A stretch of DNA of 59,543 nucleotides from an uncultured Lachnospiraceae bacterium. GTDB lineage: Bacteria > Bacillota > Clostridia > Lachnospirales > Lachnospiraceae. The stretch is taken from positions 1-59,543 of the forward strand of contig CANRLR010000049.1 of assembly GCA_947631505.1 (NCBI GenBank). The letters are read 5' to 3'. The translations under genes were made by a program, and so were the position numbers. Each line of letters begins with the position of its first letter. Positions within the stretch are counted from its first letter, which is position 1. This document shows, piece by piece, positions 1 through 27,676 of this stretch. The notes beneath the pieces were generated by a model. It made no database searches. It had not been told where the DNA came from and saw nothing but the letters and a program-made list of their open reading frames with translations.

Positions 1-105
1 GGGGACTGCAACACCGGGGACTGGAACACCGGGGACTGCAACACCGGGAACAGGAACACCGGGGACTGGAACACCGGGGACTGGAACACCGGGGACTGGA
101 ACAAA
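1..105 (+). repeat. 15-bp in-frame tandem repeat (7 units)
   Basis: Units of 15 bp follow the pattern GGGGACTGSAACACC. Six are complete, one of them (46-60) diverged to GGGAACAGGAACACC, and the seventh ends in AAA. The array begins at or before the window edge. It is coding sequence and lacks spacers, so it is not CRISPR. Near-identity of the units indicates recent slippage or unequal recombination. Confidence 0.9.
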
Positions 106-456
106 TCTTCTTTCAATACAGGATGCTTTAACACAGAAGAAAGAAATATCTTCCTGTTTGACAAACCTTTTAACTGGTCATATCAGGACTGGTTACATTC
201 AGAAGCACGACATTTATTGAATCAGATACCCAAAAATGTTGTTGAATGGATTTATTCAGAGGATATGACAGATGAAGAAAAGGCTGAATATCCAACACAT
301 GAAACAACAGGCGGTTATTTGAAGGTACTGGATGAATCTGAATGTGGTCAAATTTGGTGGGATGGACTGACAGACAGGCAGAAAGAAGTTATCAGGAGCA
401 TTCCAAACTATAACAAGGAAATCTTTGAACAGATTACAGGTATCAAGACGGAATGA
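1..456 (+). CDS. GDxNT pentapeptide-repeat phage protein, 5' truncated
   Basis: The reading frame is open from base 1, so the start lies upstream of the window. The visible N-terminal part is seven tandem five-residue units of the type GDWNT/GDCNT. They are followed by a unique domain of about 115 residues containing the segment EWIYSEDMTDEEKAEYP and a THETTGGYLK stretch. This architecture resembles repeat proteins of unknown function that I recall from clostridial phages; the repeats suggest an elongated beta structure, but that is inference. The stop overlaps the start of the helicase gene (453), so it belongs to the same operon. Function unknown. Confidence 0.75.
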   Translation, partial: GDCNTGDWNTGDCNTGNRNTGDWNTGDWNTGDWNKSSFNTGCFNTEERNIFLFDKPFNWSYQDWLHSEARHLLNQIPKNVVEWIYSEDMTDEEKAEYPTHETTGGYLKVLDESECGQIWWDGLTDRQKEVIRSIPNYNKEIFEQITGIKTE

Positions 457-12106: not shown

Positions 12107-12535
12107 ATGAAAGCAAAGGACTATTTATCACAGGTATCTGTTCTAAATGTAAAAATTGGTCAAAAACAAATGCAGTATGAAGAACTGTTACAAACTGCAA
12201 TTTCTACAGGTGCTATTAGATATGACAAAGAAATGGTACAGACTTCTTTGACAGGTGACAGTACAAGCAATATCATATGCAAATATATTGATTTACAAAG
12301 TAAAATCAACAGGGATATTGACCGATTTGTTGACTTAAAAAATAAGATAATCAATGAGATTCACGAATTGTCTAATGTAGGTTTTATTAGATTACTATAT
12401 ATGCGATACATAGAAGAAAAAAGACTTGAAGAAATAGCAGTTGAACTGAATTACTCATATCAGTATGTGAGAGAATTACACGGCTACGCATTAAAAGCAT
12501 TTACAGATGCACACCCGGAATTATTTCAAAAATAG
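12107..12535 (+). CDS. ArpU/DUF1492-type phage transcriptional regulator
   Basis: 142 aa. The N-terminal two thirds are helical. The C-terminus is a sigma-70 region-4-like helix-turn-helix: LLYMRYIEEKRLEEIAVEL then SYQYVRELHGYALKAF. This matches the DUF1492/ArpU/RinA group, which activates late genes at promoters upstream of the terminase small subunit. It lies directly upstream of such a promoter with phased repeats. Ribosome site GAAAGGACGG is close to the ATG. Confidence 0.8.
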   Translation: MKAKDYLSQVSVLNVKIGQKQMQYEELLQTAISTGAIRYDKEMVQTSLTGDSTSNIICKYIDLQSKINRDIDRFVDLKNKIINEIHELSNVGFIRLLYMRYIEEKRLEEIAVELNYSYQYVRELHGYALKAFTDAHPELFQK

Positions 12536-12597
12536 CCTACAAAATCCTACAAAGTTCCTACAGTAATCCTACATAAAAGTGTGATATTGTATATAGT
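12536..12597 (+). promoter_or_regulatory. Late promoter with four phased CCTACA sites
   Basis: CCTACA occurs at 12536, 12546, 12557 and 12568, spaced 10, 11 and 11 bp, so all face the same side of the helix. TATAGT at 12592-12597 is a good -10, and the last repeat covers the -35 position, where no TTGACA exists. This is the layout of an activator-dependent promoter; the adjacent ArpU-type regulator is the obvious candidate. Confidence 0.55.
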
Positions 12598-12617
12598 GAA
12601 AATTCAAAAATTGATGA

Positions 12618-12659
12618 AAAACACCCTTGAAATTGATATGTTTCAGGGGTTTTTCTTTT
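12618..12659 (+). terminator. Intrinsic terminator in the late leader
   Basis: ACCCTTGAAA (12623-12632) pairs with TTTCAGGGGT (12641-12650), one G-T pair, loop of eight, flanked by further A-T pairs and followed by TTTTTCTTTT. It stops early read-through. It also lies downstream of the proposed late -10, so it may act as an attenuator for the terminase operon. Confidence 0.7.
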
Positions 12660-12686
12660 GAAATCTGTCAGAAAGGGGGCGGTTTT

Positions 12687-13193
12687 GTGAAGAAAGAAGT
12701 GAAACTGACGGCAAAACAACAGGCTTTTGTTGATGAATATCTGATTGACTTAAATGCCACACAGGCTGCCATCCGGGCGGGTTATTCAGCAAAAACGGCA
12801 GATCAGCAAGGGTCAAGGATGTTGGCAAATGTCAAGGTTCAACAGGCAGTCAGTCAGGCAATGGCAGAACGGAGCAAACGAACCGGGATTAATCAGGACA
12901 GGGTTATTCTTGAACTTGCCCGGATAGGTTTTGTGAAGATGACGGACGTGGTTGACGAAGAAGGACAGATTAGGTGTGATGCAACAGATGATGACCTTGC
13001 TTGTATTGAATCAATCAAATACAAAAGTTCAGACACAGATTCCGGGTCAAGTGTTGAAAGGGAAGTCAAGATTGGTTCAAAGTTAAAAGCCCTTGAACTT
13101 CTTGGGAAGCACTTGGGTATGTGGAATGACAAACTGGATGTGAATGTTTCACTGCCTGTTGTCATATCCGGGGAAAAAGATCTTGAAGATTAG
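12687..13193 (+). CDS. Terminase small subunit
   Basis: 168 aa from GTG at 12687, chosen for the GAAAGGGGG site 7 bp upstream. The N-terminus has the terminase_2 signature KLTAKQQAFVDEYLIDLNAT followed by QAAIRAGYSAKTA, a DNA-binding helix-turn-helix. The C-terminus is an oligomerisation and motor-contact region. It recognises the packaging site on concatemeric phage DNA and hands it to the large subunit, whose gene overlaps it by 11 bp. Confidence 0.9.
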   Translation: MKKEVKLTAKQQAFVDEYLIDLNATQAAIRAGYSAKTADQQGSRMLANVKVQQAVSQAMAERSKRTGINQDRVILELARIGFVKMTDVVDEEGQIRCDATDDDLACIESIKYKSSDTDSGSSVEREVKIGSKLKALELLGKHLGMWNDKLDVNVSLPVVISGEKDLED

Positions 13194-14508
13194 TTCACAG
13201 TACGTTTTTGACTATCAGAAACGGATTATCTACCCGGAACGGTACAGGAACAGTTCAGGCAGATTGAATGTACGTCTGCCTGATATTGTCGGCAAGGGTT
13301 ACGGCACGTTTTGGCGTTACCGAGGAAGATACAGGGTTGTAAAGGGAAGCCGTGCTTCCAAGAAATCAAAGACAACGGCTTTATGGTTCATTACAAACAT
13401 GATGAAATACCCTGATGCAAATGCCCTTGTAGTCAGAAAGACATTCCGAACCCTGAAAGATTCCTGTTTTACTGAATTGAAATGGGCTATTCACAGGTTA
13501 GGTGTTGATGCACACTGGGATATAAAAGAATCACCCATTGAAATGACCTACAAGCCAACAGGTCAGAAGATTTATTTCAGGGGATTGGATGACCCTTTGA
13601 AGGTAACATCAATCACGGTTGAACACGGTTATTTGTGTTGGATGTGGATTGAAGAAGCATATGAAATTGGTTCAGAGGATGATTTCAATATGCTTGATGA
13701 ATCAATTCGTGGGGCTATCCCTGAAAGTTCAGGATTGTTCAAACAGATAACCTTGACCCTGAACCCTTGGAATGAACACCACTGGATCAAGAAAAGGTTT
13801 TTTGACAACCCGGATGAAGAAACCCTTGCAATGACCACCAACTACTTGTGCAATGAATGGTTGGATGCGGCAGACCGAAAAGTATTTGAAACAATGAAAC
13901 GGCAGAACCCAAGGCGTTATAAAGTGGCGGGTCTTGGTGACTGGGGTATTGTTGACGGTCTTGTATATGAGAACTGGGAAGAAAAACTTTTCAGCCTTGA
14001 TGATGTGAAAGCAGTCACCGGAGTTCAGTCAAAATTTGGTCTTGACTTTGGTTACACGAATGACCCAAGTGCATTGTATTGTGGAATGATTGACCACGCC
14101 ACAAGAACAATATGGGTATTTGATGAAATGTACAAGCCGGGCATGAGCAATGAAGCGATTGCGGCAGAAGTTACCCGGATGGGCTACGCAAAGGAAAAGA
14201 TCACGGCTGATTCTGCTGAACCGAAAAGCATTGACAGGTTGCGGGTCCTTGGATTGCCACACATACGGAAAGCACGAAAAGGCAAAGACAGCATACTGAA
14301 CGGCATTGACTTCATTCAGGACTATCACATTATCATTCACCCAAGGTGCGTGAACTTCCTGACAGAGATTGGCAACTATCAATGGGATGTTGACCCAAAG
14401 ACAGGAAGAAAGATAAATAAACCTGTTGATGACTTCAATCACCTTATGGATGCAATGCGGTATGCTTTGGAAGATGATAGCCGTGGTGATACATACAGTT
14501 TTGAATAA
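13183..14508 (+). CDS. Terminase large subunit (PBSX type)
   Basis: 441 aa from the TTG at 13183, with CCGGGGAAAA as a weak ribosome site; translation is probably coupled to terS. The ATPase half has the diverged Walker A VVKGSRASKKSKTT and Walker B CWMWIEEA. The RNase H-like nuclease half has FGLDFGYTNDPSA, ITADSAEPKSIDRLR and DDFNHLMDAMRYAL, with its acidic residues intact. It translocates DNA into the prohead and makes the cut. Length and motifs are complete. Confidence 0.93.
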   Translation: MKISSQYVFDYQKRIIYPERYRNSSGRLNVRLPDIVGKGYGTFWRYRGRYRVVKGSRASKKSKTTALWFITNMMKYPDANALVVRKTFRTLKDSCFTELKWAIHRLGVDAHWDIKESPIEMTYKPTGQKIYFRGLDDPLKVTSITVEHGYLCWMWIEEAYEIGSEDDFNMLDESIRGAIPESSGLFKQITLTLNPWNEHHWIKKRFFDNPDEETLAMTTNYLCNEWLDAADRKVFETMKRQNPRRYKVAGLGDWGIVDGLVYENWEEKLFSLDDVKAVTGVQSKFGLDFGYTNDPSALYCGMIDHATRTIWVFDEMYKPGMSNEAIAAEVTRMGYAKEKITADSAEPKSIDRLRVLGLPHIRKARKGKDSILNGIDFIQDYHIIIHPRCVNFLTEIGNYQWDVDPKTGRKINKPVDDFNHLMDAMRYALEDDSRGDTYSFE

Positions 14509-14528
14509 AAGCAACAAATTAGTAACAC

Positions 14529-14561
14529 ATAGCCCCGGAAACGGTTGTTTCATAGGGCTAT
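14529..14561 (+). other. Two-step hairpin between terL and portal
   Basis: ATAGCCC (14529-14535) pairs with GGGCTAT (14555-14561). Inside, GAAAC (14538-14542) pairs with GTTTC (14547-14551) around GGTT. An asymmetric internal loop (CG / ATA) separates the stems. No U-tract follows, so it is probably an mRNA structure, not a terminator. Confidence 0.5.
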
Positions 14562-14598
14562 TGAAATATTAAGAAATGAAAAGGGGTGAAACAGACCA

Positions 14599-16137
14599 AT
14601 GTTCACAAACTTGTTAGATAATCTGACCATGAGGGTCAGCAACTTTATATTGCAAGGCGTTCATTCAAGGATGACTGACAGAGAATTTCTTGAAAAGGAA
14701 ATCCAAAAGTGGGAAGGTTCACCCAAACGGATAATGCAGATCAAGGGATTCCTGTATTATGGTGGCGATCACGATATTCTGACCCGCAAGCGTACAATGA
14801 TCGGCAATGATGGAAAACTGGAAGTGGTGGATAATCTGCCGAACAACCATATCATTGATAACCAGTACGGTAAACTTGTAAACCAAAAAACAAACTATCT
14901 GTTGGGGCAGCCTGTTGCGGTTCATGGTGACAATGAACAGTATGTTAAACTGTTGCAGAAAGTGTTCAACAGGCGTTTTCAGCGTACTTTGAAAAATTGT
15001 GGCAAAGCATCATACAACGGCGGGATTGCTTGGTTATATCCGTACTACACAGAAGAAGGGGAATTTGCTTTTCGTATGTTCCCGGCGTATGAGGTGCTAC
15101 CTTTTTGGAAAGATTCAGAACACACCATGCTTGACTTCTTTGTCAGGATGTACATTGTGATTGGTTATCAGGGAACTATGCCGGAACTGATCAAGAAAGT
15201 GGAAGTGTACGATCTTGACGGTGTTCACAAGTTCATCTATGACCACGGTTCACTGATTCCTGATATTGTGAACGGTGAACAGGCAGATGTTCCACACGTT
15301 ACTATGGTTGACAGTCAGGGGAACGTGACCGGGTTTAATTGGTCAAGGATTCCTCTGATTCCGGTCAAGTGCAATAGTGATGAAATACCTTTGCTGAAAA
15401 GGGTCAAGTCATTACAGGACGGTATCAATGTGATGCTGTCCGATTTTGAAAATAATATGCAAGAGGACGCACGAAATACAATCCTTGTATTGAAGAACTA
15501 TGACGGTACGAACTTGGGTGAGTTCAGAAATAACCTTGCAACCTATGGTGCAGTAAAGGTCAGGAATGATGATTCTGCAAAAGGCGGGGTTGAAACGCTT
15601 GAAATCACGGTCAATGCAGACAACTACAAGGCTATTGTGGAGATATTCAAGAAAGCCCTGATTGAAAATGGCATGGGTTATGATGCAAAGGATGACAGAC
15701 TTTCCGGCAACCCAAACCAAATGAACATTCAATCAATGTATTCCGACATTGACAATGATGCAGACGATACGGAAACAGAATTTCAAGCCGCATTTGATGA
15801 TATTCTTTGGTTCGTCAATGCACATTTGGCAAATACCGGGAAGGGTGACTTTGAAGGTGAGGAAGTGGAAATCATCTTCAACCGGGATGTGCTTGTCAAT
15901 GAATCTGAAACCATTGATAACTGTCAGAAGTCAATGGATATATTGTCACTTGAAACGATTCTGTCAATACACCCTTGGGTGAATGACGTACAGGAAGAAC
16001 TTGACAGACTGGAAGAACAGAAACAGAAAGAACAGGAAGAATTTGAAAAGCAATACAACCCATTCAATCAGCTGGGTCAGGCAGTTGCCCCGGATAATGA
16101 CAAAGGCGGTGGTCTGAATGGCAAAGAAGAAACGTGA
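14599..16137 (+). CDS. Portal protein (SPP1 Gp6-like)
   Basis: 512 aa. It shows the SPP1-type portal pattern: LVNQKTNYLLGQPVAVHGDN early, the crown/wing region with FRMFPAYEVLPFW, then LSDFENNMQEDARNTILVLK. A charged C-terminal tail (LDRLEEQKQKEQEEFEKQYN) ends the protein. The portal dodecamer forms the DNA entry vertex and docks the terminase. AAAAGGGGTG lies upstream of the ATG. The 3' end overlaps the MuF gene by 20 bp. Confidence 0.92.
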   Translation: MFTNLLDNLTMRVSNFILQGVHSRMTDREFLEKEIQKWEGSPKRIMQIKGFLYYGGDHDILTRKRTMIGNDGKLEVVDNLPNNHIIDNQYGKLVNQKTNYLLGQPVAVHGDNEQYVKLLQKVFNRRFQRTLKNCGKASYNGGIAWLYPYYTEEGEFAFRMFPAYEVLPFWKDSEHTMLDFFVRMYIVIGYQGTMPELIKKVEVYDLDGVHKFIYDHGSLIPDIVNGEQADVPHVTMVDSQGNVTGFNWSRIPLIPVKCNSDEIPLLKRVKSLQDGINVMLSDFENNMQEDARNTILVLKNYDGTNLGEFRNNLATYGAVKVRNDDSAKGGVETLEITVNADNYKAIVEIFKKALIENGMGYDAKDDRLSGNPNQMNIQSMYSDIDNDADDTETEFQAAFDDILWFVNAHLANTGKGDFEGEEVEIIFNRDVLVNESETIDNCQKSMDILSLETILSIHPWVNDVQEELDRLEEQKQKEQEEFEKQYNPFNQLGQAVAPDNDKGGGLNGKEET

Positions 16138-17887
16138 TTACTGGCAGAAAAGGTTCAGTCAGATTGAACAGATTGAACACGATCAGGGTGTTCAGTGCTA
16201 TGCAGATATTGAAAGACTATACCGTAACGCACAAAGGCAGATTGAAAGTCAGATTGAAGCGTGGTATGGTCGGTTTGCTGACAATAACAATATTTCCCTT
16301 GCAAAAGCCAAACGCCTGTTGACCACAAAGGAACTTGCTGAACTGAAATGGGATGTTCAGGAATATATCCGGTATGGTCAGGAAAACGCTGTCAATGGTC
16401 AGTGGATCAAGCAACTGGAAAATGCGTCATCCCGGTATCATATCAACAGACTGGAAGCAATCAGGTTACAAATGCAGCAGTCCATTGAAGTATTGTTTGG
16501 AAACCAACTTGACGATATTGACCAGACCATGAGGGCAATTTATAAAGACGGTTTTTACAGGACGGCTTTTGAAGTTCAGAAAGGTTTTGGGGTCGGTTGG
16601 GATTTTGGCACACTGGATGAAAAACAGATAAACAAAATTATCAACAGACCTTGGGCAGCTGATGGGAAGAATTTTTCTGCAAGGATTTGGCAGAATAAAC
16701 AGAAGTTAGTGAACGAATTGAACACTACATTGACACAGGGTATTGTGTTAGGGCAAGACCCGCAGAAAACCATAGACACAATTGCCCGAAAAATGAACAC
16801 GTCAAAGAAGAATGCCGGGCGGCTTGTAATGACGGAACAGGCATTTTTCAGCGAAACGGCACAACATGATTCATTCAAGGAACTTGGGATTGAAATGTAT
16901 GAGATTGTGGCAACCCTTGATTCACATACATCTGATATATGTCAGGAAATGGACGGCAAGGTTTTCCCTATGTCACAGTGGGAAGTTGGGGTCACAGCCC
17001 CACCATTTCATGTTTATTGCCGTTCAACTACTGTTCCGGCGTTTGATGATGAATTTGACCTGATTGGTAAACGTGCCGCAAGGAGTGAGGATGGCAAGAC
17101 CTATTATGTGCCGTCAACAATGACATACAAGCAATGGGAAAAGTCCTTTGCAACCGGGAACGGTGACAAGTCAGGGTTGAAGCAAGTCTCACCTGATGAT
17201 ACAATGAAAGTTAAAGCAGACATAACAAAGTATAAAAAGAAAGATGCTATTGACCGTTTGAAAACGGAACACGGCATTGAATTCAAGGATAGCAGAAAAT
17301 ACGTTATGGATGAAAGACTTCTTTCATCATGCGTCAGTTGGTTGGATGGATTCAGTTCAAAGTATGGTTCATTCATGCAGAATATCAAACACAGACTGCC
17401 TTTGCTACAAAATCAGCCCGCTTCCAAGATGAAGGGCAAGGTTGGGTGCTTTTCGTGGTACACTGTAACAGGCAAGGTTGATTCCATAGAACTGAACGGC
17501 GTATATTTTTCAGATTATGACTATATGCAGAAATATGTTCAGGGTGCTATCAGTTCAAAGTGGACTGTTGCAAACGCTGAACCACACAAGACCTTTGTTC
17601 ATGAATTTGGTCATTATGTGTCACATTCCATGAAAGAGATCATAGGCAATAAGAACTGGCAGCATGATTTCATTCAGGAATGTATCACAGAGTTCAAAAA
17701 ACATGAACCAAATTACCAGTATGATTCATATGTTGGCATGGGTGACTATGTTTCAAGGTATGGGGCAACCAAGGAAGCAGAACTTTTTGCAGAAGCATTT
17801 GCAGAAGCGTTTGGGGGTGACAATCCAAGAACCTTTGCAAAGATTTTTGGTGAAAAACTGGATAAACTTTTGAAAGAGGTGAAATAA
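16118..17887 (+). CDS. MuF head protein with C-terminal zinc metallopeptidase domain
   Basis: 589 aa. Residues to about 340 form a phage Mu gpF-type minor head domain, ending with SDICQEMDGKVFPMSQW and PPFHVYCRSTTVP. Residues about 370-589 are an added domain with the zincin motif HEFGH (His 495, Glu 496, His 499) and, about 55 residues on, EAELFAEAFAEAF, whose Glu could be the third zinc ligand (gluzincin pattern). Known MuF polymorphic toxins carry effector domains in the same place and may be delivered with the DNA, so an ejected peptidase effector is inferred. It overlaps the portal gene. Confidence 0.83.
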   Translation: MAKKKRDYWQKRFSQIEQIEHDQGVQCYADIERLYRNAQRQIESQIEAWYGRFADNNNISLAKAKRLLTTKELAELKWDVQEYIRYGQENAVNGQWIKQLENASSRYHINRLEAIRLQMQQSIEVLFGNQLDDIDQTMRAIYKDGFYRTAFEVQKGFGVGWDFGTLDEKQINKIINRPWAADGKNFSARIWQNKQKLVNELNTTLTQGIVLGQDPQKTIDTIARKMNTSKKNAGRLVMTEQAFFSETAQHDSFKELGIEMYEIVATLDSHTSDICQEMDGKVFPMSQWEVGVTAPPFHVYCRSTTVPAFDDEFDLIGKRAARSEDGKTYYVPSTMTYKQWEKSFATGNGDKSGLKQVSPDDTMKVKADITKYKKKDAIDRLKTEHGIEFKDSRKYVMDERLLSSCVSWLDGFSSKYGSFMQNIKHRLPLLQNQPASKMKGKVGCFSWYTVTGKVDSIELNGVYFSDYDYMQKYVQGAISSKWTVANAEPHKTFVHEFGHYVSHSMKEIIGNKNWQHDFIQECITEFKKHEPNYQYDSYVGMGDYVSRYGATKEAELFAEAFAEAFGGDNPRTFAKIFGEKLDKLLKEVK

Positions 17888-17888
17888 C

Positions 17889-18035
17889 ATGGAAGAACCC
17901 AAAGGAATTGATTATTGGTATATCGGTGAAAATGAAAAGTGGTGCATCAAGGATGATGCCCCGGAATGGGCGAAAGAAGAATTTGAAGAATACTTCAATG
18001 ATGAACCGGACGAAAACGGAATTGCGAGGATATGA
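17889..18035 (+). CDS. Small acidic protein after MuF
   Basis: 48 aa, strongly acidic and Trp-rich: starts MEEPKGIDYWYIGENEKWC, later EWAKEEFEEYF. It starts 1 bp after the MuF stop, with GAAAGAGGTGAAATAAC as ribosome site, and is followed at once by a terminator. Its place next to an effector-type MuF tail raises the possibility of an immunity or chaperone role, but nothing in the sequence proves it. Confidence 0.6.
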   Translation: MEEPKGIDYWYIGENEKWCIKDDAPEWAKEEFEEYFNDEPDENGIARI

Positions 18036-18041
18036 GAAAAG

Positions 18042-18067
18042 GCACTGTCAAATGACGGTGCTTTTTT
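18042..18067 (+). terminator. Intrinsic terminator after the MuF pair
   Basis: GCACTGTC (18042-18049) and GACGGTGC (18054-18061) form an 8-bp stem with one G-T pair, loop AAAT, followed by TTTTTT. It separates the portal/MuF genes from the scaffold/capsid genes, which should change their transcript ratio. Confidence 0.85.
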
Positions 18068-18144
18068 GGTGGGTATAAATGGTCAAAAGATTTATTTTAA
18101 TGCTTATATGACCGCTATATGAGTTTATCTGAAAGGATGATTTG

Positions 18145-18222
18145 ATGGAACGCATAAAAGAAGTATTAGTTAGCACCAAATCCAACATTTACTATTACAC
18201 AGAAAGGGGTGAAAAAGGATGA
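18145..18222 (+). CDS. Possible 25-aa leader peptide
   Basis: A short frame starting MERIKEVLVSTKSNIYYY follows a good ribosome site, GAAAGGATG, with 6 bp spacing. Its end overlaps a second ATG of only seven codons (18219-18242). Either may be a translated leader of the scaffold/capsid message. Coding status is uncertain. Confidence 0.3.
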   Translation: MERIKEVLVSTKSNIYYYTERGEKG

Positions 18223-18383
18223 AACCGGACAACAGCACATAAGAAAGGAACGGTGATCCAAAAATATCTGCCAACTATGGGTAAAATAGTCTGTCGGGTG
18301 TGGCAAGACGTAAAACCGACACAACCAAACTATCATATGGGAGTTACCCCGTAAAAAACGTATTTGAAAGGATGGATAAAACT
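18223..18383 (+). ncRNA. Putative structured leader of scaffold/capsid genes
   Basis: No convincing gene fills this stretch. It contains a chain of short stems: ACTAT/ATAGT (18274-18290), TGTCGG/CCGACA (18292-18321), GGG/CCC (18339-18349) and CGT/ACG (18350-18360). GGGT near 18296 could also pair with ACCC at 18346, a possible pseudoknot. It ends at the scaffold ribosome site GAAAGGATGG. I cannot assign it to a named RNA family. Confidence 0.4.
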
Positions 18384-19007
18384 ATGAAAAGATCAGAACT
18401 TGAAGCATTAGGATTGAACAAGGAACAGGTGGATGCGGTCATCAAGATTAACGGTGATGACATTGAAAATGCCAAAAAAACGGCAGAATCAGAAACGCAG
18501 AATGTTCAGAAGGAAGTTAATTCATTGAAAAGTCAGGTCAAGGAACGTGACAAGCAGCTTGAAACGCTGAAAGACACGGCGGGTGATAACGAAGCCCTGA
18601 CAAAGCAGATTGCAGATTTACAGGCAGAAAATGCCACGGCAAAAGAAACCCATGAAACGGAAATGACACGCCTGAAAGTGGATTTTGCAGTTGAAAAGGC
18701 ACTTGCCGGAGCAAATGCAAAGAACGTCAAGGCGGTCAAGGCACTGCTTGACCTTGAAGATGCAAAACTTGACAAGGAAGGGAACGTCAAGGGATTACAG
18801 GAACAGATTGACAAGTTAACGTCGGCAGATGATACCAAGTTCCTGTTTGAAGTTCCTGAACAGGATCAGGGACAGCAGACATTCAAGGGATTTCAGCCGG
18901 GAACACCAGCAGATCAGAAGCCGGGTGCGGGGGTTGACACAAGCAAGATGAACTATGATGAACTTTGTGCCTACCTTGAAGCAAATCCTGATGCAAAGTT
19001 AGAGTAA
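18384..19007 (+). CDS. GP20-like phage scaffold/minor structural protein
   Basis: 207 aa from ATG 18384, after GAAAGGATGG; an in-frame GTG at 18300 has no ribosome site and crosses the leader structure. The N-terminus MKRSELEALGLNKEQVDAVI is typical of Phage_GP20 proteins. A long coiled coil (QKEVNSLKSQVKERDKQLET) covers residues about 30-100. GP20-type proteins sit before the capsid gene and act as scaffolds in relatives. The tail GTPADQKPG...YDELCAYLEANP matches the usual C-terminus. Confidence 0.88.
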   Translation: MKRSELEALGLNKEQVDAVIKINGDDIENAKKTAESETQNVQKEVNSLKSQVKERDKQLETLKDTAGDNEALTKQIADLQAENATAKETHETEMTRLKVDFAVEKALAGANAKNVKAVKALLDLEDAKLDKEGNVKGLQEQIDKLTSADDTKFLFEVPEQDQGQQTFKGFQPGTPADQKPGAGVDTSKMNYDELCAYLEANPDAKLE

Positions 19008-19034
19008 TTCAACAGAAAGGAAAGGTAAAAAATC

Positions 19035-20243
19035 ATGGCAAAATTTGATGCGAAAAGTTTTAACCCACAGGCATTCAAGTATATGGTTGGGCGTGTCTGA
19101 AATCTTCATATGTATGAAATTAAAAAATCTAAGGCACTGGCAGGAAACCCTGATATTAAGGATGTGTTTACTACACAGAATGGAACAGCTTATGCAAAAA
19201 TTGCAATGCGTGGGTTACTTGACGGTGATGCTGTCAATTATGACGGCGAAACGGACATTACTGCTACGTCCACCAAAACCTTTGAACAGGGTGTTGTGGT
19301 CGTAGGTCGTGCTAAAGCATGGGAAGAAAAAGATTTTTCCTATGACATTACAGGCGGCGTTGACTTTATGCAGAATATCGCTAATCAGGTAGGGGAATAC
19401 TGGGATGGTATTGATCAGGACACTATTCTTGCAACCCTTGATGGTGTGTTCAACATGACAGGAAAAGCAAATGAAATGTTTGTTGATAAGCATACTTATG
19501 ATGTGACTGAAAAGAATGAAGGCAAGATGACAGCAACCACGCTGAACAGTGCTGCAAATAAGGCTTGCGGTGCGAACAAGAAAAAGTTCTCACTGGTGTT
19601 CATGCACAGTGACGTGGCTACGAACCTTGAAAACCTGAATCTTGTTGCACATTTGAAGTATACCGACAAAGACGGTATTCAGCGTGACCTTGACCTGTAT
19701 ACATGGAATGGAAAACTGGTCGTTACTGATGACGATATGCCGACAGTAGAACAGGAAGGATTCTATATCAAGGCAACTGCTGTCACAGAAGGTGCAAAGA
19801 AAGTGGTTGCTGATACAGTCGAATCCCCGGCAGCGAATGAAATTAAGGTTTCAGACGTGACCCCGGTTGCTGAATCCTATGAATCCCCGGCAGAAGGTGA
19901 TTATGTGACGTTTGTTGAACCGTTCACAGAGTACACAACCTATATACTGGGTAATGGTTCAATTTCTTATGAGGATATTGGTGCAAAAGTACCGTATGAA
20001 ATGCAGCGTGACGCAAAGACAAAGGGCGGTGTTGACCGTCTTTATACTCGTCAGCGTAAAGTGTTCGCACCGTTTGGCATTTCATATGAAAAGGCAGTGC
20101 AGAAAACGCTTTCACCAACAGATGACGAATTAAAGAATGGAAAAAACTGGTCACTGGTACATTCCGGTGAAGATGTGGCGGCAAATCGCAGTTACATTAA
20201 CCACAAGGCAATCCCTATTGCAAGAATCAAGTCAAGGGGATAA
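19035..20243 (+). CDS. Major capsid protein, in-frame UGA at codon 22
   Basis: The strong ribosome site GAAAGGAAAGG and ATG at 19035 open a frame MAKFDAKSFNPQAFKYMVGR that meets TGA at 19098-19100, then continues in the same frame through NLHMYEIKKSKALAGNPDI to 20243. Both sides look like one HK97-fold capsid protein (GLLDGDAVNYDGETDI is a hallmark), so the stop is internal. Without the stop it would be 402 aa; from ATG 19110 it is 377 aa, but that ATG has no ribosome site. Options are a disabling mutation, reinitiation 10 bp after the stop, readthrough or a base error. An insert-like region of about 70 residues (AVTEGAKKVVADTVESPAAN) may be a surface domain. Confidence 0.85.
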
Positions 20244-20264
20244 TGGAAAAGGTCAGGTGATTAT

Positions 20265-20660
20265 ATGTATCGTGTGGATGAAGTAAAGAAACGATTACAG
20301 TCCTTTGGGTATGAGGTCAGGGAAGATGATATGTTCTCCTTGACCTTTTGCGTGGAGAAAGTCAGAAGTTCCATAAAGAATGACATAAACTGGCAGGACG
20401 TTCCTGAAGGACTAGAACACATTGCTGTTGATATGGCGGTGGGTAAGTTCCTGAACGCTAAACGGACATTTGCCCCTGATGACCTTAGTAACTTTGATTT
20501 GGATTTTGCAGTAAAGCAGATTCAGACAGGAGATACCAACACAGTGTTTGCGGTCGGTGATGGCAGCAGTACACCGGAACAGCGTTTGACAGCGTTCATT
20601 AGTTATCTTCTGACTTATGGAAAATCAGAGTTCAACTCATTCAGAAGAATCAGGTGGTGA
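20265..20660 (+). CDS. Head-tail connector (DNA packaging) protein
   Basis: 131 aa, all-helical with a C-terminal TPEQRLTAFISYLLTYGKSE segment. Position directly after the capsid gene and size match the gp6/YqbG-type adaptor ring that binds the portal. The AAAGGTCAGGTG site precedes the ATG. Family assignment rests on position and composition more than on motif. Confidence 0.7.
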   Translation: MYRVDEVKKRLQSFGYEVREDDMFSLTFCVEKVRSSIKNDINWQDVPEGLEHIAVDMAVGKFLNAKRTFAPDDLSNFDLDFAVKQIQTGDTNTVFAVGDGSSTPEQRLTAFISYLLTYGKSEFNSFRRIRW

Positions 20661-20664
20661 TGGC

Positions 20665-21048
20665 ATGACTGCAATAGAAAAAGCAAGACAGGCGGCAAGG
20701 AAAGCCATTGAACAGTGCCACTATGACGGTGTATGCACTGTTACGGAACACAACAAGGTGAAAAACGATAAAACCAAGCTGACAACATTTGAAGATGCTG
20801 TTGTCTTGGAAAACCAACCCTGTCACCTTATCTTTAAGACAATAACCAGTACAGAGCAGAGCGAATCAGCAGCGGCAATCAGACAGACCACAAAATTGTT
20901 ACTGTCACCTGACGTAACCATAAAACCGGGGTCAAAAATCACTGTAACACAGGAAGGTGTCACTATTGACTATACTTGCAGCGGTGTCCCGGCTGCTTAT
21001 GGAACACACCAAGAAATAATTTTAGAATTGTTTAGGGGGTGGGCGTAA
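20665..21048 (+). CDS. Head closure protein
   Basis: 127 aa from ATG 20665, preceded by AGGTGGTGATGG. N-terminal helix TAIEKARQAARKAIEQCHYD, then a beta-rich body (ITVTQEGVTIDYTCSGVPAAYGTHQEIILE). This order and the final GTHQEIIL pattern match the head-closure (Hc1-type) proteins seen between adaptor and gp10-like genes. It ends one base before the next start. Confidence 0.7.
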   Translation: MTAIEKARQAARKAIEQCHYDGVCTVTEHNKVKNDKTKLTTFEDAVVLENQPCHLIFKTITSTEQSESAAAIRQTTKLLLSPDVTIKPGSKITVTQEGVTIDYTCSGVPAAYGTHQEIILELFRGWA

Positions 21049-21480
21049 GTGGCAAAAATGGGAAGGTTTGACCCTAGCGGTTTGAAAGAGTTTCAGAAGA
21101 AGTTGGAAAAGATTGACCAGTCGCAGATTGATGGTTTTCTTGAAGATTGTGCAAAGGAACTTGCTGCCCGGCTGTTCCGGTTAGTGGTTAAAAAAACACC
21201 AACCGGACAATACCCAAAGAGTAGCGGAAAAAAAGGCGGCACATTAAAAAGGGGTTGGTCAATCGGAAATATCCGGAAAGAAGGAAGCAACTACATCATT
21301 GAAATTGTAAACCCGGTAGAATACGCAAGCTATGTTGAATACGGACACAGGACAGCCAACCATAAAGGATGGATTTCCGGCAAGTTTATGATGACAATAT
21401 CAGAAAATGAGTTGCGGGACATAGCCCCCAAAGTGCTTGAAAACAAGTTAAAAAATTTTTTAGGGGGTGTCTTATCGTGA
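21049..21480 (+). CDS. HK97 gp10-like tail-joining protein
   Basis: 143 aa from a GTG directly after the previous TAA, with TAGGGGGTGGGCG as ribosome site. Motifs LAARLFRLVVKKTPTGQYP, GGTLKRGW and VNPVEYASYVEYGHRT are the gp10/XkdJ signature. It joins the head connector to the tail. The stop overlaps the next start by 4 bp. Confidence 0.85.
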   Translation: MAKMGRFDPSGLKEFQKKLEKIDQSQIDGFLEDCAKELAARLFRLVVKKTPTGQYPKSSGKKGGTLKRGWSIGNIRKEGSNYIIEIVNPVEYASYVEYGHRTANHKGWISGKFMMTISENELRDIAPKVLENKLKNFLGGVLS

Positions 21481-21896
21481 TTGATTTGATTATTTCCGGT
21501 ATCAGTAACGCACTGTTTGAAGTGTTTGGGTATGAAAATTATGCTACAAAAATACCACAAGACCTTGAAGCACCATGTTTCTTCATTCAGTGCATTGAAC
21601 CAAAGATAAAAAAATACATTAGCACACGTTATTTGAGGACAAACCATTTTGTGATTCAGTATTTCCCAAAATCAGAAGATGATGGGGACATGGAATGTAA
21701 CAATACAGGTGAGCGAATGTTTGAGTGTTTGGAAGTCATCAATGCTGATGGCTTCCTTTTGCGTGGTACAGAAATGAGATTTGAAGTAAAAGATGGTGTT
21801 CTGCATTTCTTTGTGGACTATAACAGTTTTATCAGGAAGGTAAAACAAAAGGAAACAATGGGAAGTTTGCAGACTGGCGTTCATGTGAAAGGTTAG
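21477..21896 (+). CDS. Tail terminator protein (XkdI/DUF6838-like)
   Basis: 139 aa from GTG 21477 overlapping the previous stop, ribosome site TAGGGGGTG. Beta-alpha fold with FGYENYATKIPQDLEAPCFF and LRGTEMRFEVKDGVLHFFVD. Size and place fit the tail-terminator that caps sheath and tube in contractile phages. The family name is from recall; position is strong support. Confidence 0.75.
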   Translation: MIDLIISGISNALFEVFGYENYATKIPQDLEAPCFFIQCIEPKIKKYISTRYLRTNHFVIQYFPKSEDDGDMECNNTGERMFECLEVINADGFLLRGTEMRFEVKDGVLHFFVDYNSFIRKVKQKETMGSLQTGVHVKG

Positions 21897-21904
21897 GTGA
21901 TTAA

Positions 21905-22117
21905 ATGGCAGTAAAAGGACAGAAAGAAGTAACTAAAACCGCAGAAACACAGGCGGTTAAGACGGAAACCAAGTATTCCAAAGAACAGATTCTTGATTCT
22001 GCAAAATTTGCCAACCGCCATGACATTTTGAATGCACTTCTGACTGATGAGAAAGAATACAGCATTGCAGAAGTGAACAGTGTCATGGATAGTTGGTTCA
22101 AGAAAGGAGTGAAATAA
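21905..22117 (+). CDS. Small phage protein before the sheath gene
   Basis: 70 aa. Basic Thr/Lys-rich N-terminus, then KYSKEQILDSAKFANRHDIL and YSIAEVNSVMDSWFKKGVK. Small proteins with this C-terminal pattern precede sheath genes in PBSX-like tails; function unknown. The end carries the ribosome site (GAAAGGAGTG) for the sheath gene. Confidence 0.65.
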   Translation: MAVKGQKEVTKTAETQAVKTETKYSKEQILDSAKFANRHDILNALLTDEKEYSIAEVNSVMDSWFKKGVK

Positions 22118-22119
22118 AA

Positions 22120-23460
22120 ATGGCTTTAGGTGGCGGTACTTTTACAGTACAGAATAAGGTTTTGCCGGGTTCATACATCAATTTCTTTTCAGCAACAGCG
22201 GCATCTGCTTCCATTTCTGACAGAGGAATTGCCACAATTCCACTGATGTTGGACTGGGGCAAGGATGATGAAGTAATTACAGTCACAAATGAAGATTTTC
22301 AGAAACGGTCACAAAAGATTTTCGGTTATGCGTATACGGATGACCAAATGAAAGGATTACGTGACTTGTTTATTGGTACACAAACCCTGTATACATACAG
22401 GCTGAACAGTGGTGGTGTCAAGGCATCAAATGATTATGCAAGGGCAGTATGCAGCGGCATCCGGGGGAATGATTTGAAAATCGTCATTCAGGGTAATTTG
22501 GATGAAACGGATGCATGGGATGTTATTACCTATCTTGGAGTAGACAAGGTTGACGTACAGACCGTAAAATCCGTAAAAGAATTAAATGCAAATGATTTTG
22601 TATCGTTTAAGGATGATTTTGAACTGGCAGTAGTTGCCGGGGCTTCTCTTTCAGGTGGTACAAATGGAACAGCAACAAATTCTGCATATCAGACATACCT
22701 TGATAAGATTGAATCTTACCGTTACAACGCAATGGGTGTTGTTACTACGGATGATACAGTCAAGGCATTGTTTGCTACATTTAATAAGCGCTTGCGTGAT
22801 GAAATTGGTATCAAGTTCCAGTTGGTGCTTTATAACTACACAAAACCTGATTACATGGGTGTGATCAGTGTGAAAAACAAGTGTCTTGATGGTGCTGCCA
22901 AAGGTGAAGATGGTGCAATGGTTTATCCTGATGAAGCGGCTGCTGTTTATTGGACAGTTGGAACACAAGCTGGATGTGCAGTCAATGCTTCTGTTCAGAA
23001 CAAGGTATATAATGGTGAGTTTGAACTTGATGTGAACTACACACAGGCAGAATTGATTGCAGCAATTAAAGCCGGGGAATTTGTTTTCCACAGGGTTGAT
23101 TCTGATATCAGGGTACTGGAAGATATTAACACTATGGTAACAACCACTGACACAATGGGTAACGTATTCAAAGATAATCAGACCATTCGTGTCATTGACG
23201 AACTGGCAAATTCAGATGCACAGCTTTTCAATAAAAAGTATTTGGGTGTTGTCCCAAATGATGATGCAGGGCGTTCTGCATTGTGGGTAGATTTGTGCAA
23301 AATCAGGAAACAGCTTCAAAAAATCCGTGCAATCGAAAATTTCAGTGAAACAGATGTTCAGATTGCACAGGGAGATACAAAAAAAGCAGTTGTGGTAATG
23401 TGTGCAATTACTGTTGTCAATGCAATGTCAAAAATGTATATGACAACCACGATTGCCTAA
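22120..23460 (+). CDS. Contractile tail sheath protein (XkdK-like)
   Basis: 446 aa from ATG 22120 after AGAAAGGAGTG. The N-terminus MALGGGTFTVQNKVLPGSYI, the internal TYRLNSGGVKASNDYARAVCSGIRG region (in two parts) and the C-terminal KIRKQLQKIRAIENFSETDV match PBSX-type sheaths. The C-terminal pair of domains forms the sheath mesh. Its presence shows the prophage is a myovirus. The length is normal. Confidence 0.92.
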   Translation: MALGGGTFTVQNKVLPGSYINFFSATAASASISDRGIATIPLMLDWGKDDEVITVTNEDFQKRSQKIFGYAYTDDQMKGLRDLFIGTQTLYTYRLNSGGVKASNDYARAVCSGIRGNDLKIVIQGNLDETDAWDVITYLGVDKVDVQTVKSVKELNANDFVSFKDDFELAVVAGASLSGGTNGTATNSAYQTYLDKIESYRYNAMGVVTTDDTVKALFATFNKRLRDEIGIKFQLVLYNYTKPDYMGVISVKNKCLDGAAKGEDGAMVYPDEAAAVYWTVGTQAGCAVNASVQNKVYNGEFELDVNYTQAELIAAIKAGEFVFHRVDSDIRVLEDINTMVTTTDTMGNVFKDNQTIRVIDELANSDAQLFNKKYLGVVPNDDAGRSALWVDLCKIRKQLQKIRAIENFSETDVQIAQGDTKKAVVVMCAITVVNAMSKMYMTTTIA

Positions 23461-23481
23461 AAGAAAGGAAGGTGAACAAAA

Positions 23482-23967
23482 ATGAACAATGCAGCAGTAA
23501 TGTTTGCCGGGGATAGTGTTTCAGCCGCACTTGCAGAATGTTATATGACGATTGGTGACAACAGGTATAATTTCATGCAGGCTATCAACCTTGAAGCAAA
23601 GTTTACCAAGAAAAAGACGAAAGTTCCCATTCTTGGCAAGACAGGTCAGGGTAACAAGTCAACTGGATGGGAAGGTAGCGGAAAAGCTACATTCCATTAC
23701 AATCAGTCTGTTTTCCGTCAGATGATGTGCGACTATAAGGACACCGGGAAAGATGCGTATTTTGAAGTTCAGATCATCAACGAAGATCCAACATCTACGG
23801 TTGGTAAACAGGAAATGATTCTTCTTGACTGCAATATTGACGGTGGTATCTTGGCAAAGTTTGACGCAGACGGTGAATACTTGGATGAAGATATGGATTT
23901 CACGTTTGATGACTTCTCTATGCCGACAGGGTTTAATAACCTTGACGGTTTTCTTGTAACTGAATAA
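23482..23967 (+). CDS. Tail tube protein (XkdM-like)
   Basis: 161 aa. Features ECYMTIGDNRYNFMQAINLE, KKTKVPILGKTGQGNKSTG and FTFDDFSMPTGFNNLDGF identify the PBSX/XkdM tail-tube family. Hexameric rings of this protein form the inner tube. AGAAAGGAAGGTG lies upstream. A terminator follows, as expected for highly expressed sheath and tube genes. Confidence 0.92.
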   Translation: MNNAAVMFAGDSVSAALAECYMTIGDNRYNFMQAINLEAKFTKKKTKVPILGKTGQGNKSTGWEGSGKATFHYNQSVFRQMMCDYKDTGKDAYFEVQIINEDPTSTVGKQEMILLDCNIDGGILAKFDADGEYLDEDMDFTFDDFSMPTGFNNLDGFLVTE

Positions 23968-23984
23968 TGCAACTAGTATTTTTA

Positions 23985-24023
23985 TACCCCATATAGCTTT
24001 ATATAAAGCCATATGGGGTTTTT
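23985..24023 (+). terminator. Intrinsic terminator after tail tube gene
   Basis: CCCCATAT (23987-23994) pairs with ATATGGGG (24011-24018), then an A/C mismatch and GCTTTAT/ATAAAGC continue the stem; TTTTT follows. Being nearly symmetric, it may be bidirectional. It limits transcription of the chaperone and tape-measure genes. Confidence 0.85.
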
Positions 24024-24061
24024 AAGTACACACAGGTATATTAGAAAGGACGGTAATAATT

Positions 24062-24493
24062 ATGTCAAATTTAAGCAGATTTATGAAAAGCAACAAAAAG
24101 AAAAGGGAAAACGGATTTTACGCACCCACCACATCATTGACGGATGAAAACGGAAAGCCGCTGAACTGGGAGTTTAAGCCGCTGTCATCCAAAGACAATG
24201 AACGTATCAGGGACGAATGTACTGTTGACGTGCAGATTACAGGAAAGCCTAATATGTACCGTCAGCGGTTGAATACGTCGCAGTACCTTGTCAAATTGAT
24301 TGCAGCGTGCGTTGTTACGCCAAACCTATATGACAAGCAATTACAGGATTCATACGGTGTTAAGAAACCGGAAGATTTAATTTATGAAATGGTGGATGAA
24401 TCCGGTGAGTATCAGGAACTTTGTGTGTGGGTTCAGCAGTATCAGGGTTTCACAAAAACACTTGATGAAAGAGTGGACGAAGCAAAAAACTAA
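24062..24493 (+). CDS. Tail assembly chaperone (XkdN-like), short form
   Basis: 143 aa. GKPLNWEFKPLSSKDNERIR, then YRQRLNTSQYLVKLIAACVV match the PBSX XkdN family, the functional equivalent of lambda G. It binds the tape-measure protein during tube assembly. AGAAAGGACGG precedes the ATG. The frame ends at TAA immediately after a slippery heptamer, so a second longer product is predicted. Confidence 0.88.
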   Translation: MSNLSRFMKSNKKKRENGFYAPTTSLTDENGKPLNWEFKPLSSKDNERIRDECTVDVQITGKPNMYRQRLNTSQYLVKLIAACVVTPNLYDKQLQDSYGVKKPEDLIYEMVDESGEYQELCVWVQQYQGFTKTLDERVDEAKN

Positions 24494-24681
24494 TTCAGGG
24501 CGGTGATGGTGAAGCGATTTATGCGTATTACGCACTTCATAAACTTCACATAAGACCGTCCGAATGGGTGGATATGGATGAAAGTGAAAGAGCGTTCATC
24601 ATTGCGGCTATTGATGAAAAAGCCAAAGAAGATGAAAAGCAGAGAAAAGAAGCAGAACGACAGGTAAACAAAATGAAATAA
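24062..24681 (+). CDS. Tail assembly chaperone, -1 frameshift fusion
   Basis: A -1 shift at 24484-24490 joins the chaperone to a 63-codon frame reading LIQGGDGEAIYAYYALHKLH, ending with a Lys/Glu-rich helix (KAKEDEKQRKEAERQVNKMK) at TAA 24679-24681. The total is about 206 aa. The downstream frame has no start codon of its own in a sensible position, yet reads as protein, which supports the shift. Analogous to lambda G-T and conserved in tailed phages. Confidence 0.85.
24484..24490 (+). promoter_or_regulatory. Programmed -1 frameshift site AAAAAAC
   Basis: A AAA AAC lies in the correct phase (gcA AAA AAC) and is followed directly by the zero-frame TAA. Slipping back one base continues in the downstream frame. 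The motif is the canonical X XXY YYZ heptamer. Confidence 0.85.
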
Positions 24682-24698
24682 AAAAGGTAGGTGATTAC

Positions 24699-27674
24699 AT
24701 GGGGTCAGTTCAGACAGGGATTGAAATGCAAGACCAGTTCAGCAACGTCTTAATGAGTTTTATCAATAATATGACTGCTGCTGTTACTGCCGCAAACAGT
24801 TTTTCAGATGTGATGAACCAAAATATAAACACTGGTGGTTTATCAGATGTTCGTAGTGAAATACAGTCAGTTACGGAAGAATTAAACGCATTGAACCAGT
24901 CAGCACAACAACCTATATCACCAACCGTTTCAGCAGGGGGTCAGAGTGTTCAGCAGTTCAATGAACAGATTGAACAGACACAGGGATTGTTGCAGCGTGT
25001 TTCAAACATTCAGCAACAGCTTAATACAGAAAGTCAGCAGTTTGATGTTCTTCCTGATGATACACAGGTAAAAATTCAGGGATTGAACCGCAGCCTTTTG
25101 GAAATGCAGGCGGCAATGGAACAGGTTTTACAAAATCCCTTTAATATGCCGACAGAAGCAGTTGAAGCAGAACTTGCTTCTTTGCAGAACAGAATCAGGC
25201 AAACCATACAGGAACAGTCCGCATTGAATGAAACACTGTCACACATGGATGTGGAGATTGAGCAACCACCCCCGGTACAGATTCCAGTGGAATGGCAGAC
25301 TGACAATTTGGAAGTGTTTACAAGTACGGGCATTGACCGATTCCGTCAGGAAATACAGTCTGCAAACACCATGTTGGAACAGTTGAGTGATACACAGAAT
25401 GAGATAGCAAGACAGGCGTTCAATACAAATGTTCTACCACCTTCTGCATTTCAGGATATGAACAGACTGGCAACAAGGATTAATGCTATTCGTCAACGTA
25501 TTGGACAGATTGAGAACAACTCGCTGAACTTAGGGACTGACCGGGTAAACGGTGAACTGGAACGGTTACGAACACAGTTAAGTCAAGCAGTTCAGCAGCA
25601 GAATGAATTGAACAGTGCTATTGACAGAATGGATGTCAGGGGTGCTAATTCAGCATATTTGCAGTTGTCACAGACGATTGGAAACACAGAAGCCTATATT
25701 CGTGACAATATAAATGAACAGGGCGTGTTCAATGACACAATCAATGAAGGCACTGAAAAGGCAAACAGTCTGATAGGGACAATCAAAGGTGCTATTGCGG
25801 CATATGCCACAGTGAATACGGTCAAGTCTGCACTTAATGCATCAGATGAACTAATGCAAACAAGATCAAGATTAAACCTGATGAATGATGGTTTGCAGTC
25901 AACAGATGATTTGGTCAATATGGCGTACATTGCGGCACAGGATGCAAGGGGTGAATTTGGTGCAATGGCAAGCGTCATTGCCCGGTTTGGCAACAATGCA
26001 AAGGATGCGTTTAGCAGTTCAGCAGAAGTTGTTCAGTTTGCAGGGCTTGTCCAAAAGCAGATGACGATTGCTGGGGCATCCACAGACGAAGCATCAAATG
26101 CAATGCTCCAGTTGTCACAGGCACTTGGTTCAGGTGTTCTACGTGGTGATGAATTAAACAGTATTTTTGAAAATGCACCGAATCTGATTCAGAACATAGC
26201 TGATTATTTAAATGTCCCAATAGGGGAAATCCGCGAAATGGCGGCAGATGGAGAAATATCAGCAGGTATTGTAAAAAAAGCCATTTTTGCGGCTACGGAT
26301 GACATAAATGCAAAATTCAATTCCATGCCTATGACATGGGGGCAAGTGTGGACTTCATTGCAGAACACCGCAACAATGGCATTTAAACCAATACTGCAAA
26401 GGATGAATGAGATTGCAAACAGTGAACAGTTTCAAGTGTTCACCACTAACGCAATTAACGCTATGGCAACCGTTGCCGGAATACTGTTACAAGTGTTTGA
26501 TCTGATTGGTACAATAGGTCAATTTGCAGCGGATCACTGGGATGTATTAAGTCCTATTATTTACGGTGTTGTTGGTGCATTAGCGGCATATCTTGCCATA
26601 CTAGCAGTTTATAACACTGTTCAGGCTATATCTAATGGTTTGAAAGCATTGGCGGCATTTCAAGAAAGTGTTCATGCAGCTGCAACAATGATGTCAACAG
26701 GTGCAACTTTTGCGGCAACAGCGGCACAATATGGCTTGAACGCTGCAATGTATGCTTGTCCTATCGTGTGGATTATCATGCTGATTATTGCTTTGATTGC
26801 AATTATTTATGCTGTATGTGCGGCTATTGCGAAATTGACAGGTATTGCAAATTCAGGGTTAGGTGTTATTACCGGCCGTGTGAATGTTGTAATTCAGTTC
26901 TTCAAAAATTTAGGCTTACAGGTGGCGAATATTGCTCTTGGCATAGGGAAAGCAATAGAGGCAGTCGCATTCAACATCATGACTGCATTTGGTAATGCAA
27001 TCAAGTCAGTTCAGTCATGGTGGTATGGTCTGCTGTCTACGGTGTTAACCGTGGTAGCCAAAGTCTGCGAAGCCTTGAATAAACTGCCGTTTGTGGAGTT
27101 TGACTATTCAGGAATAACTAATGCAGCGGATGATTATGCAGCCAAATCAGCAGCAGTGGCAAATAGTAAACAGGATTACAGATCAGTTGCGGATGCATTC
27201 AATGCTGGTATGTCAACTTATGATACCTTTCAGAGTGGATGGAAGAGTGATGCATTTAAAGCCGGGGCAGCTTGGGGTGATGGAGTATCAAACAAAGTTT
27301 CCAATGCTTTCAAAAACAAATCAACCTATGTACCACAGGCAAGCGATTATTCAAACGCTATTGCTAATTCAGGCAATGGAGCCGCTGACCTTGCGAATGC
27401 AAAAAACGGTGCTACAACGGCAAAGAATACAGGTGATACGGCAAAGGCAGCACAAAAGGCGGCACAATCACTTGACATTACCGGGGAAAACCTGAAATAC
27501 ATCAAAGATATGGCTGAACGTGAGTATGTCAATCGCTTTACAACTGCAAAAATCAAGGTAAAGCAGACAAATCACAACAATGTAAACAGTAACATGGATT
27601 TGGATGGTATCAATGAGTATTTGAGGTCAGACCTTGAACAACGCATGGCGGCAACAGCGGAAGGAGTGCATTAA
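24699..27674 (+). CDS. Tail tape measure protein
   Basis: 991 aa. The N-terminal 330 residues are Gln-rich coiled coil (QFNEQIEQTQGLLQRVSNIQ). A tape-measure core domain follows with SSAEVVQFAGLVQKQMTIAG and QALGSGVLRGDELNSIFENA. Several hydrophobic segments occur around residues 625-720 (PIVWIIMLIIALIAIIYAVC), thought to insert into the host membrane during DNA entry. Its length sets tail length. The start follows AAAAAGGTAGGTG, next to the chaperone fusion end. Confidence 0.93.
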   Translation: MGSVQTGIEMQDQFSNVLMSFINNMTAAVTAANSFSDVMNQNINTGGLSDVRSEIQSVTEELNALNQSAQQPISPTVSAGGQSVQQFNEQIEQTQGLLQRVSNIQQQLNTESQQFDVLPDDTQVKIQGLNRSLLEMQAAMEQVLQNPFNMPTEAVEAELASLQNRIRQTIQEQSALNETLSHMDVEIEQPPPVQIPVEWQTDNLEVFTSTGIDRFRQEIQSANTMLEQLSDTQNEIARQAFNTNVLPPSAFQDMNRLATRINAIRQRIGQIENNSLNLGTDRVNGELERLRTQLSQAVQQQNELNSAIDRMDVRGANSAYLQLSQTIGNTEAYIRDNINEQGVFNDTINEGTEKANSLIGTIKGAIAAYATVNTVKSALNASDELMQTRSRLNLMNDGLQSTDDLVNMAYIAAQDARGEFGAMASVIARFGNNAKDAFSSSAEVVQFAGLVQKQMTIAGASTDEASNAMLQLSQALGSGVLRGDELNSIFENAPNLIQNIADYLNVPIGEIREMAADGEISAGIVKKAIFAATDDINAKFNSMPMTWGQVWTSLQNTATMAFKPILQRMNEIANSEQFQVFTTNAINAMATVAGILLQVFDLIGTIGQFAADHWDVLSPIIYGVVGALAAYLAILAVYNTVQAISNGLKALAAFQESVHAAATMMSTGATFAATAAQYGLNAAMYACPIVWIIMLIIALIAIIYAVCAAIAKLTGIANSGLGVITGRVNVVIQFFKNLGLQVANIALGIGKAIEAVAFNIMTAFGNAIKSVQSWWYGLLSTVLTVVAKVCEALNKLPFVEFDYSGITNAADDYAAKSAAVANSKQDYRSVADAFNAGMSTYDTFQSGWKSDAFKAGAAWGDGVSNKVSNAFKNKSTYVPQASDYSNAIANSGNGAADLANAKNGATTAKNTGDTAKAAQKAAQSLDITGENLKYIKDMAEREYVNRFTTAKIKVKQTNHNNVNSNMDLDGINEYLRSDLEQRMAATAEGVH

Positions 27675-27676
27675 CA

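What the first reader, a model, noticed from the sequence alone, without database searches (positions are those of the whole stretch)
19035..19110. In-frame UGA at codon 22 of the major capsid gene
The strong ribosome site and ATG at 19035 start a capsid-like N-terminus, then TGA (19098-19100), then the same frame continues as a clean capsid protein. All other structural genes look intact. This is either the mutation that locks the prophage, a termination-reinitiation switch (next ATG 10 bp after the stop), readthrough/recoding, or a base error. A stop in the most-expressed structural gene is notable.
Basis: seen in the sequence. Interest (0 to 1): 0.75.

Follow-up and report, generated by a model that had tools for sequence, protein, structure and literature searches.

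The report
Prophage capsid gene cut by stop
A dormant virus in a bacterial genome carries a stop signal near the start of its main shell-protein gene, which probably leaves it unable to build virus particles; this looks like an ordinary broken gene rather than a new way of reading the genetic code.

Summary
An ATG at 19035 opens a frame that meets TGA at 19098-19100 (codon 22) and then stays open to 20243. The protein is an SPP1 gp13-like major capsid protein. The codons before the stop encode its N-terminal arm. All 67 distinct relatives readable at that column have the arm and a sense codon there, always proline. In SPP1 the corresponding arm binds the scaffold and ties capsomeres together; the UGA plus the next in-frame ATG (19110) would remove nearly all of it. 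UGA is in ordinary use as a stop in this phage. I found no UGA-decoding tRNA, no unusual RNA fold and no Shine-Dalgarno site before 19110. The arm codons still show strong purifying selection and the neighbouring head and tail genes, as far as compared, are intact, so the stop looks young. Best explanation: a recent natural nonsense allele that leaves the prophage unable to assemble capsids by itself. A plain one-base error or mutation does not explain it fully, because UGA lies at least two base changes from any proline codon. Sequencing or assembly error, functional reinitiation and read-through remain possible but less likely. New member of a known kind; low to moderate interest.

The parts
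19035..19097 (+). 21 sense codons of the N-terminal arm of the major capsid protein, from ATG 19035
   Evidence: arm present in 67 of 67 distinct relatives; dN much lower than dS
19098..19100 (+). in-frame TGA at codon 22, at a column that is proline in 67 of 67 distinct relatives
19101..19109 (+). 9-nt spacer between the TGA and the next in-frame ATG; no Shine-Dalgarno site seen
   Evidence: folding no better than shuffles
19110..20243 (+). open body of the major capsid protein, 377 codons from ATG 19110 plus stop (SPP1 gp13-like, phrog_247)
18300..19007 (+). capsid scaffolding protein (PF06810), the expected partner of the missing arm, intact
20265..20660 (+). head-tail adaptor (phrog_132), intact
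14599..16137 (+). portal protein (SPP1 gp6-like, PF05133), intact; ends in TGA
22093..23967 (+). contractile tail sheath (22093-23460) and tail tube (23482-23967), intact

Best explanation
This is a recent, natural nonsense allele of the only SPP1-gp13-type major capsid gene found in this genome. Ribosomes that start at 19035 make 21 residues of the N-terminal arm and stop at the UGA. At most a small fraction restart at ATG 19110, giving a 377-residue protein without its arm. The missing arm is the part that, in SPP1, binds the scaffolding protein and later links neighbouring capsomeres, so procapsid assembly should fail and the prophage should be unable to make particles without outside help. 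Shown here: the stop, the conservation of the arm, the intact neighbouring genes as far as compared, UGA in ordinary use as a stop. Inferred: the loss of assembly, the low level of restart, and the presence of the stop in the living strain.
For: Stop and open frame. 67 of 67 distinct relatives keep the arm, with proline at this column; so do the 3 looked at of 26 matching phage records, two of which are annotated with the start at the arm. An IMG/VR scan for the motif with TGA gave 0 contigs, and with any codon 8 contigs, all proline. The arm is under purifying selection, so the stop looks young. Head and tail genes show no break against relatives where compared, and the body shows 0 changes at 36 columns invariant in all others. 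UGA ends 9 of 25 selected plus-strand ORFs from 12107 to 35971 and 17 of 53 selected window ORFs of 100 aa or more; release factor 2 is present. One copy only of the capsid gene was found in the genome. SPP1 arm = Ala2-Ala28; the arm change Tyr18Ala impairs procapsid formation; SPP1sus31, mutated in gene 13, is conditional lethal (PMC6813328, passages). Profile position 24 pairs with gp13 residue 24, so restart at residue 26 loses nearly the whole arm.
Against: No single base change joins UGA to a proline codon, so either two steps or one multi-base event is needed, in a gene that otherwise shows no decay. Two arm substitutions in SPP1 gp13 (Pro12Ala, Tyr18Phe) did not affect assembly (PMC6813328, passages), so not every arm contact is essential. 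No reads and no second strain were available. The particle defect was not tested.
Confidence: 0.7

Rival explanations
1. Sequencing, assembly or strain-mixing error: the living strain has a sense codon and a working capsid gene.
For: The contig is one of 49 of a draft, no reads could be seen, and what surrounds the codon looks functional.
Against: The codon differs by 2 bases from 13 and by 3 bases from 54 of the 67 relatives, and the surrounding codons are in frame, so one wrong base would not give the conserved residue.
Confidence: 0.15
2. Termination-reinitiation: ribosomes restart at ATG 19110 and the armless 377-residue protein is the capsid protein in use.
For: The ATG lies 9 nt after the stop. 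In E. coli gene pairs a distance of +14 nt cut reinitiation by 40-80% but did not abolish it (PMC10666635, passages).
Against: No Shine-Dalgarno site seen. The Met is not conserved: 10 of 67 relatives have it. None of the 67 relatives lacks the arm. The arm codons show no drift. The scaffold gene, whose product should need the arm, is intact.
Confidence: 0.08
3. Read-through or recoding of the UGA (suppressor tRNA, selenocysteine, or leaky stop) gives full-length protein, perhaps as an expression switch.
For: The arm codons stay constrained, as they would if still translated into the capsid.
Against: Release factor 2 present; UGA in usual use as a stop; no tRNA-Sec over the cut-off; no UCA-anticodon tRNA at any of 35 pattern hits; RNA around the stop folds no better than shuffles; the relatives' residue, proline, is not one that I recall being put in at UGA.
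Confidence: 0.04

Closest known systems
Bacillus phage SPP1 gp13 (PDB 4an5, 6r3a, 6r3b, 6rtl)
   Same: Same protein family by profile (E 9.3e-42); a separate scaffolding protein; N-terminal arm of about the same length
   Different: The window gene has a stop inside the arm; its phage has a contractile tail sheath, SPP1 is a siphovirus
[quoted passage not shown]
   Same: A capsid-gene mutation that blocks phage growth under non-permissive conditions (PMC6813328, passages; that 'sus' stands for suppressor-sensitive is recalled)
   Different: Laboratory mutant of another phage; its place in the gene was not looked up
prfB (release factor 2) in-frame stop
   Same: An early in-frame stop in an important gene
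   Different: There a slippery site, an internal Shine-Dalgarno-like site and a frame change make it programmed (PMC12421855, passages); here the frame does not change and I saw no such elements

Membership tests
SPP1 gp13-like major capsid proteins (phrog_247) | profile match over most of the protein | tested here: met
   E 4.7e-75; E 9.3e-42
SPP1 gp13-like major capsid proteins (phrog_247) | N-terminal arm in one open frame with the body | tested here: not met
   arm encoded, but cut off by the TGA under the standard code
SPP1 gp13-like major capsid proteins (phrog_247) | gene order scaffold - capsid - head-tail adaptor | tested here: met
   same order in Fusobacterium phage phiPaco
SPP1 gp13-like major capsid proteins (phrog_247) | HK97-type fold | not tested
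UGA recoding (code 4, suppressor tRNA or selenocysteine) | UGA not used as a stop, or a tRNA or tRNA-Sec that reads UGA | tested here: not met
   the tRNA test covers only genes that fit the pattern
programmed termination-reinitiation | overlapping or very close stop and start, conserved in relatives | tested here: not met
   +9 nt, none of 67 relatives has such a stop
programmed termination-reinitiation | measured initiation at the second start | not testable with these tools
   needs an experiment
natural nonsense allele (pseudogene) | stop absent from relatives, in a conserved coding segment | tested here: met
   67 of 67 distinct relatives
natural nonsense allele (pseudogene) | loss of function | not testable with these tools
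   inferred from SPP1 (PMC6813328, passages)

The most novel reading that the evidence does not exclude
The UGA splits the capsid gene into a 21-residue arm peptide and, by reinitiation, an armless capsid protein. The armless protein no longer assembles by itself but joins the capsids of superinfecting relatives and spoils them, so that the stop is kept because it protects the host.
Probability: 0.03. Interest if true: 0.75.

Novelty: new member of a known kind. Interest (0 to 1): 0.25.

Why it matters
If real, it shows how a single codon can disarm an otherwise well-kept prophage by removing just the capsid arm that meets the scaffold, and it gives a natural test of whether an armless HK97-type capsid protein can assemble or poison assembly. 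It also warns that a gene caller would start this gene at 19110 (as the ORF list does) and could call it an intact capsid gene.

Tried and rejected
Genome-wide or phage-wide UGA recoding: rejected (release factor 2 present, UGA a usual stop).

Selenocysteine: 10 matches to tRNA-Sec, none over the gathering score (the loose search also rings in all 14 control genomes, 5 of them over the cut-off). The 8 of 10 that became loci (L080-L087) are ordinary tRNAs.

Suppressor tRNA: 35 pattern hits (13 for the control pattern) were scanned, 20 as loci and 15 as short stretches; none is a tRNA with a UCA anticodon (one is a tRNA-Leu CAG). tRNAs that do not fit the pattern could be missed.

RNA structure around the stop: four stretches folded, z-scores -0.10 to 0.33.

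Closer relatives: none above 84% protein identity was found in the collections and genomes searched; megablast of 13144-28399 against phages gave no match. No second strain of the host species was available.

Full report
What is there. In the window an ATG at 19035, preceded by AGGAAAGG, opens a frame that is interrupted by TGA at 19098-19100 (codon 22) and then runs open to the TAA that ends at 20243. These are the only two stops in 403 codons. A mechanical ORF list starts the gene at ATG 19110 and gives 377 residues. The body matches phrog_247 and phrog_15288, both 'major head protein', and no Pfam family at 0.001. A profile made from 65 relatives and the window body matches SPP1 gp13, the coat protein of PDB 4an5 and 6r3a, at E 9.3e-42. 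Around it lie small and large terminase subunits, portal, Mu-F-like head protein, scaffold, the capsid gene, head-tail adaptor, sheath, tube, tape measure, baseplate proteins, a fibre-like gene and a holin, with replication genes before them. From about 36.4 kb the genes look chromosomal (ruvA, ruvB, a DNA polymerase I and others).

Relatives. Searches brought in 76 loci with a match to the body (read). The nearest is 84% identical in protein (L035). After dropping 7 loci and 2 duplicates, 67 distinct proteins cover the arm. All 67 have the arm in frame, and all 67 have proline where the window has the stop. Other columns invariant in these 67 within the first 32 are Met1, Phe4, Asn10 and Phe14. 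Of 26 matching phage records I looked at three outside that set (Roseburia phage Jekyll, Fusobacterium phage phiPaco and an unannotated faecal phage): all three have the arm with proline, and the two annotated ones start there. In IMG/VR the motif with TGA occurs in 0 contigs, the motif with any codon in 8, all proline.

An awkward point. The codon differs at 2 positions from 13 and at 3 positions from 54 of the 67 relatives. By the genetic code no single change joins UGA to a proline codon. A lone miscalled base is therefore a poor explanation, and a lone point mutation is too unless an intermediate residue came first. Two successive changes or one multi-base event would do. I could not tell which.

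Age and decay. Codons 4-21 have dN 0.02-0.13 and dS above 1 against nine relatives, with dS saturated for six of them. The body has dN 0.11-0.26 and dS 0.9-2.9. The window has no change at 36 columns that are invariant in all other sequences, and 3 at 147 columns invariant in the 11 nearest, within the range of those relatives (0-20). With roughly 40 nonsynonymous sites in the 18 arm codons and no clear window-specific replacement there, a long neutral period after the stop is unlikely (arithmetic; inference). In the comparison with 11 relative loci no other frame break was seen from 12107 to 24493; the small ORF 17908-18078 had no match, the C-terminal part of the Mu-F-like protein differs between phages, and the tape measure gene was only partly covered.

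Decoding. Release factor 2 is present. TGA ends 9 of 25 selected plus-strand ORFs from 12107 to 35971 and 17 of 53 selected window ORFs of at least 100 residues. No tRNA-Sec passes the cut-off. None of 35 hits to a UCA-anticodon pattern is a tRNA that reads UGA. Four folds around the stop are no better than shuffles. For reinitiation the spacer is 9 nt, with no Shine-Dalgarno site seen. Measured native pairs in E. coli lost 40-80% of reinitiation at +14 nt (PMC10666635, passages), so a weak restart is plausible.

Consequence. In SPP1 the arm is Ala2-Ala28. Its helix (Phe15-Leu26) is bound to the scaffold in the first procapsid, and the arm later unfolds and ties neighbouring capsomeres together. 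Tyr18Ala in it impairs procapsid formation, Ile10Val lowers the yield of virions, Pro12Ala and Tyr18Phe have no effect on assembly, and SPP1sus31 in gene 13 is conditional lethal (PMC6813328, passages). In the profile alignment position 24 pairs with gp13 residue 24, so a product starting at the window's residue 26 lacks nearly the whole arm. Loss of assembly is the natural inference; it was not tested. The capsid search found one copy only in this genome, so no second gene of this type was found that could stand in.

Verdict. It is most likely a recent natural nonsense allele that leaves the prophage unable to build capsids (0.70). Error (0.15), reinitiation in use (0.08), read-through or recoding (0.04) and, counted apart, the novel case of an armless spoiler protein (0.03) remain. 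In one search of the held library for 'premature stop codon', 'major capsid' and 'prophage' (listing only) 18 papers held all terms; I read none of them, so I make no claim about what is in print on such alleles.

Noticed in passing
L078 (G000:C27), about 2508-2530 of the locus, minus strand: The host's prfB seems to have its frameshift site with a TAA (CTT TAA C) in place of the usual TGA; a survey gives TAA in 1.4% of genomes with the motif (PMC12421855, passages). Read by eye; one search reports one TAA inside the match.
   Followed up: partly
window 1-120: The contig starts inside a run of 15-base repeats (GGGGACTGGAACACC-like), probably where the assembly broke; the start of the prophage seems to lie outside the window.
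   Followed up: no
window 23976-24029: A 54-base imperfect palindrome between the tail tube gene and the XkdN-like gene, possibly a terminator or regulatory site.
   Followed up: no
The genome search: Capsid relatives at E up to 1e-60 are rare in the host's own family (2 other genomes of 397 searched), but in the order-wide sample 41 other genomes of 392 had one, 37 of them in one other family (f11). The number of f11 genomes sampled was not counted. It hints that the phage came from another family.
   Followed up: no
L024 and L025 (CAMRSM010000009.1): One metagenome-assembled contig carries two capsid genes of this kind about 38 kb apart, suggesting two related prophages or an assembly artefact.
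   Followed up: no
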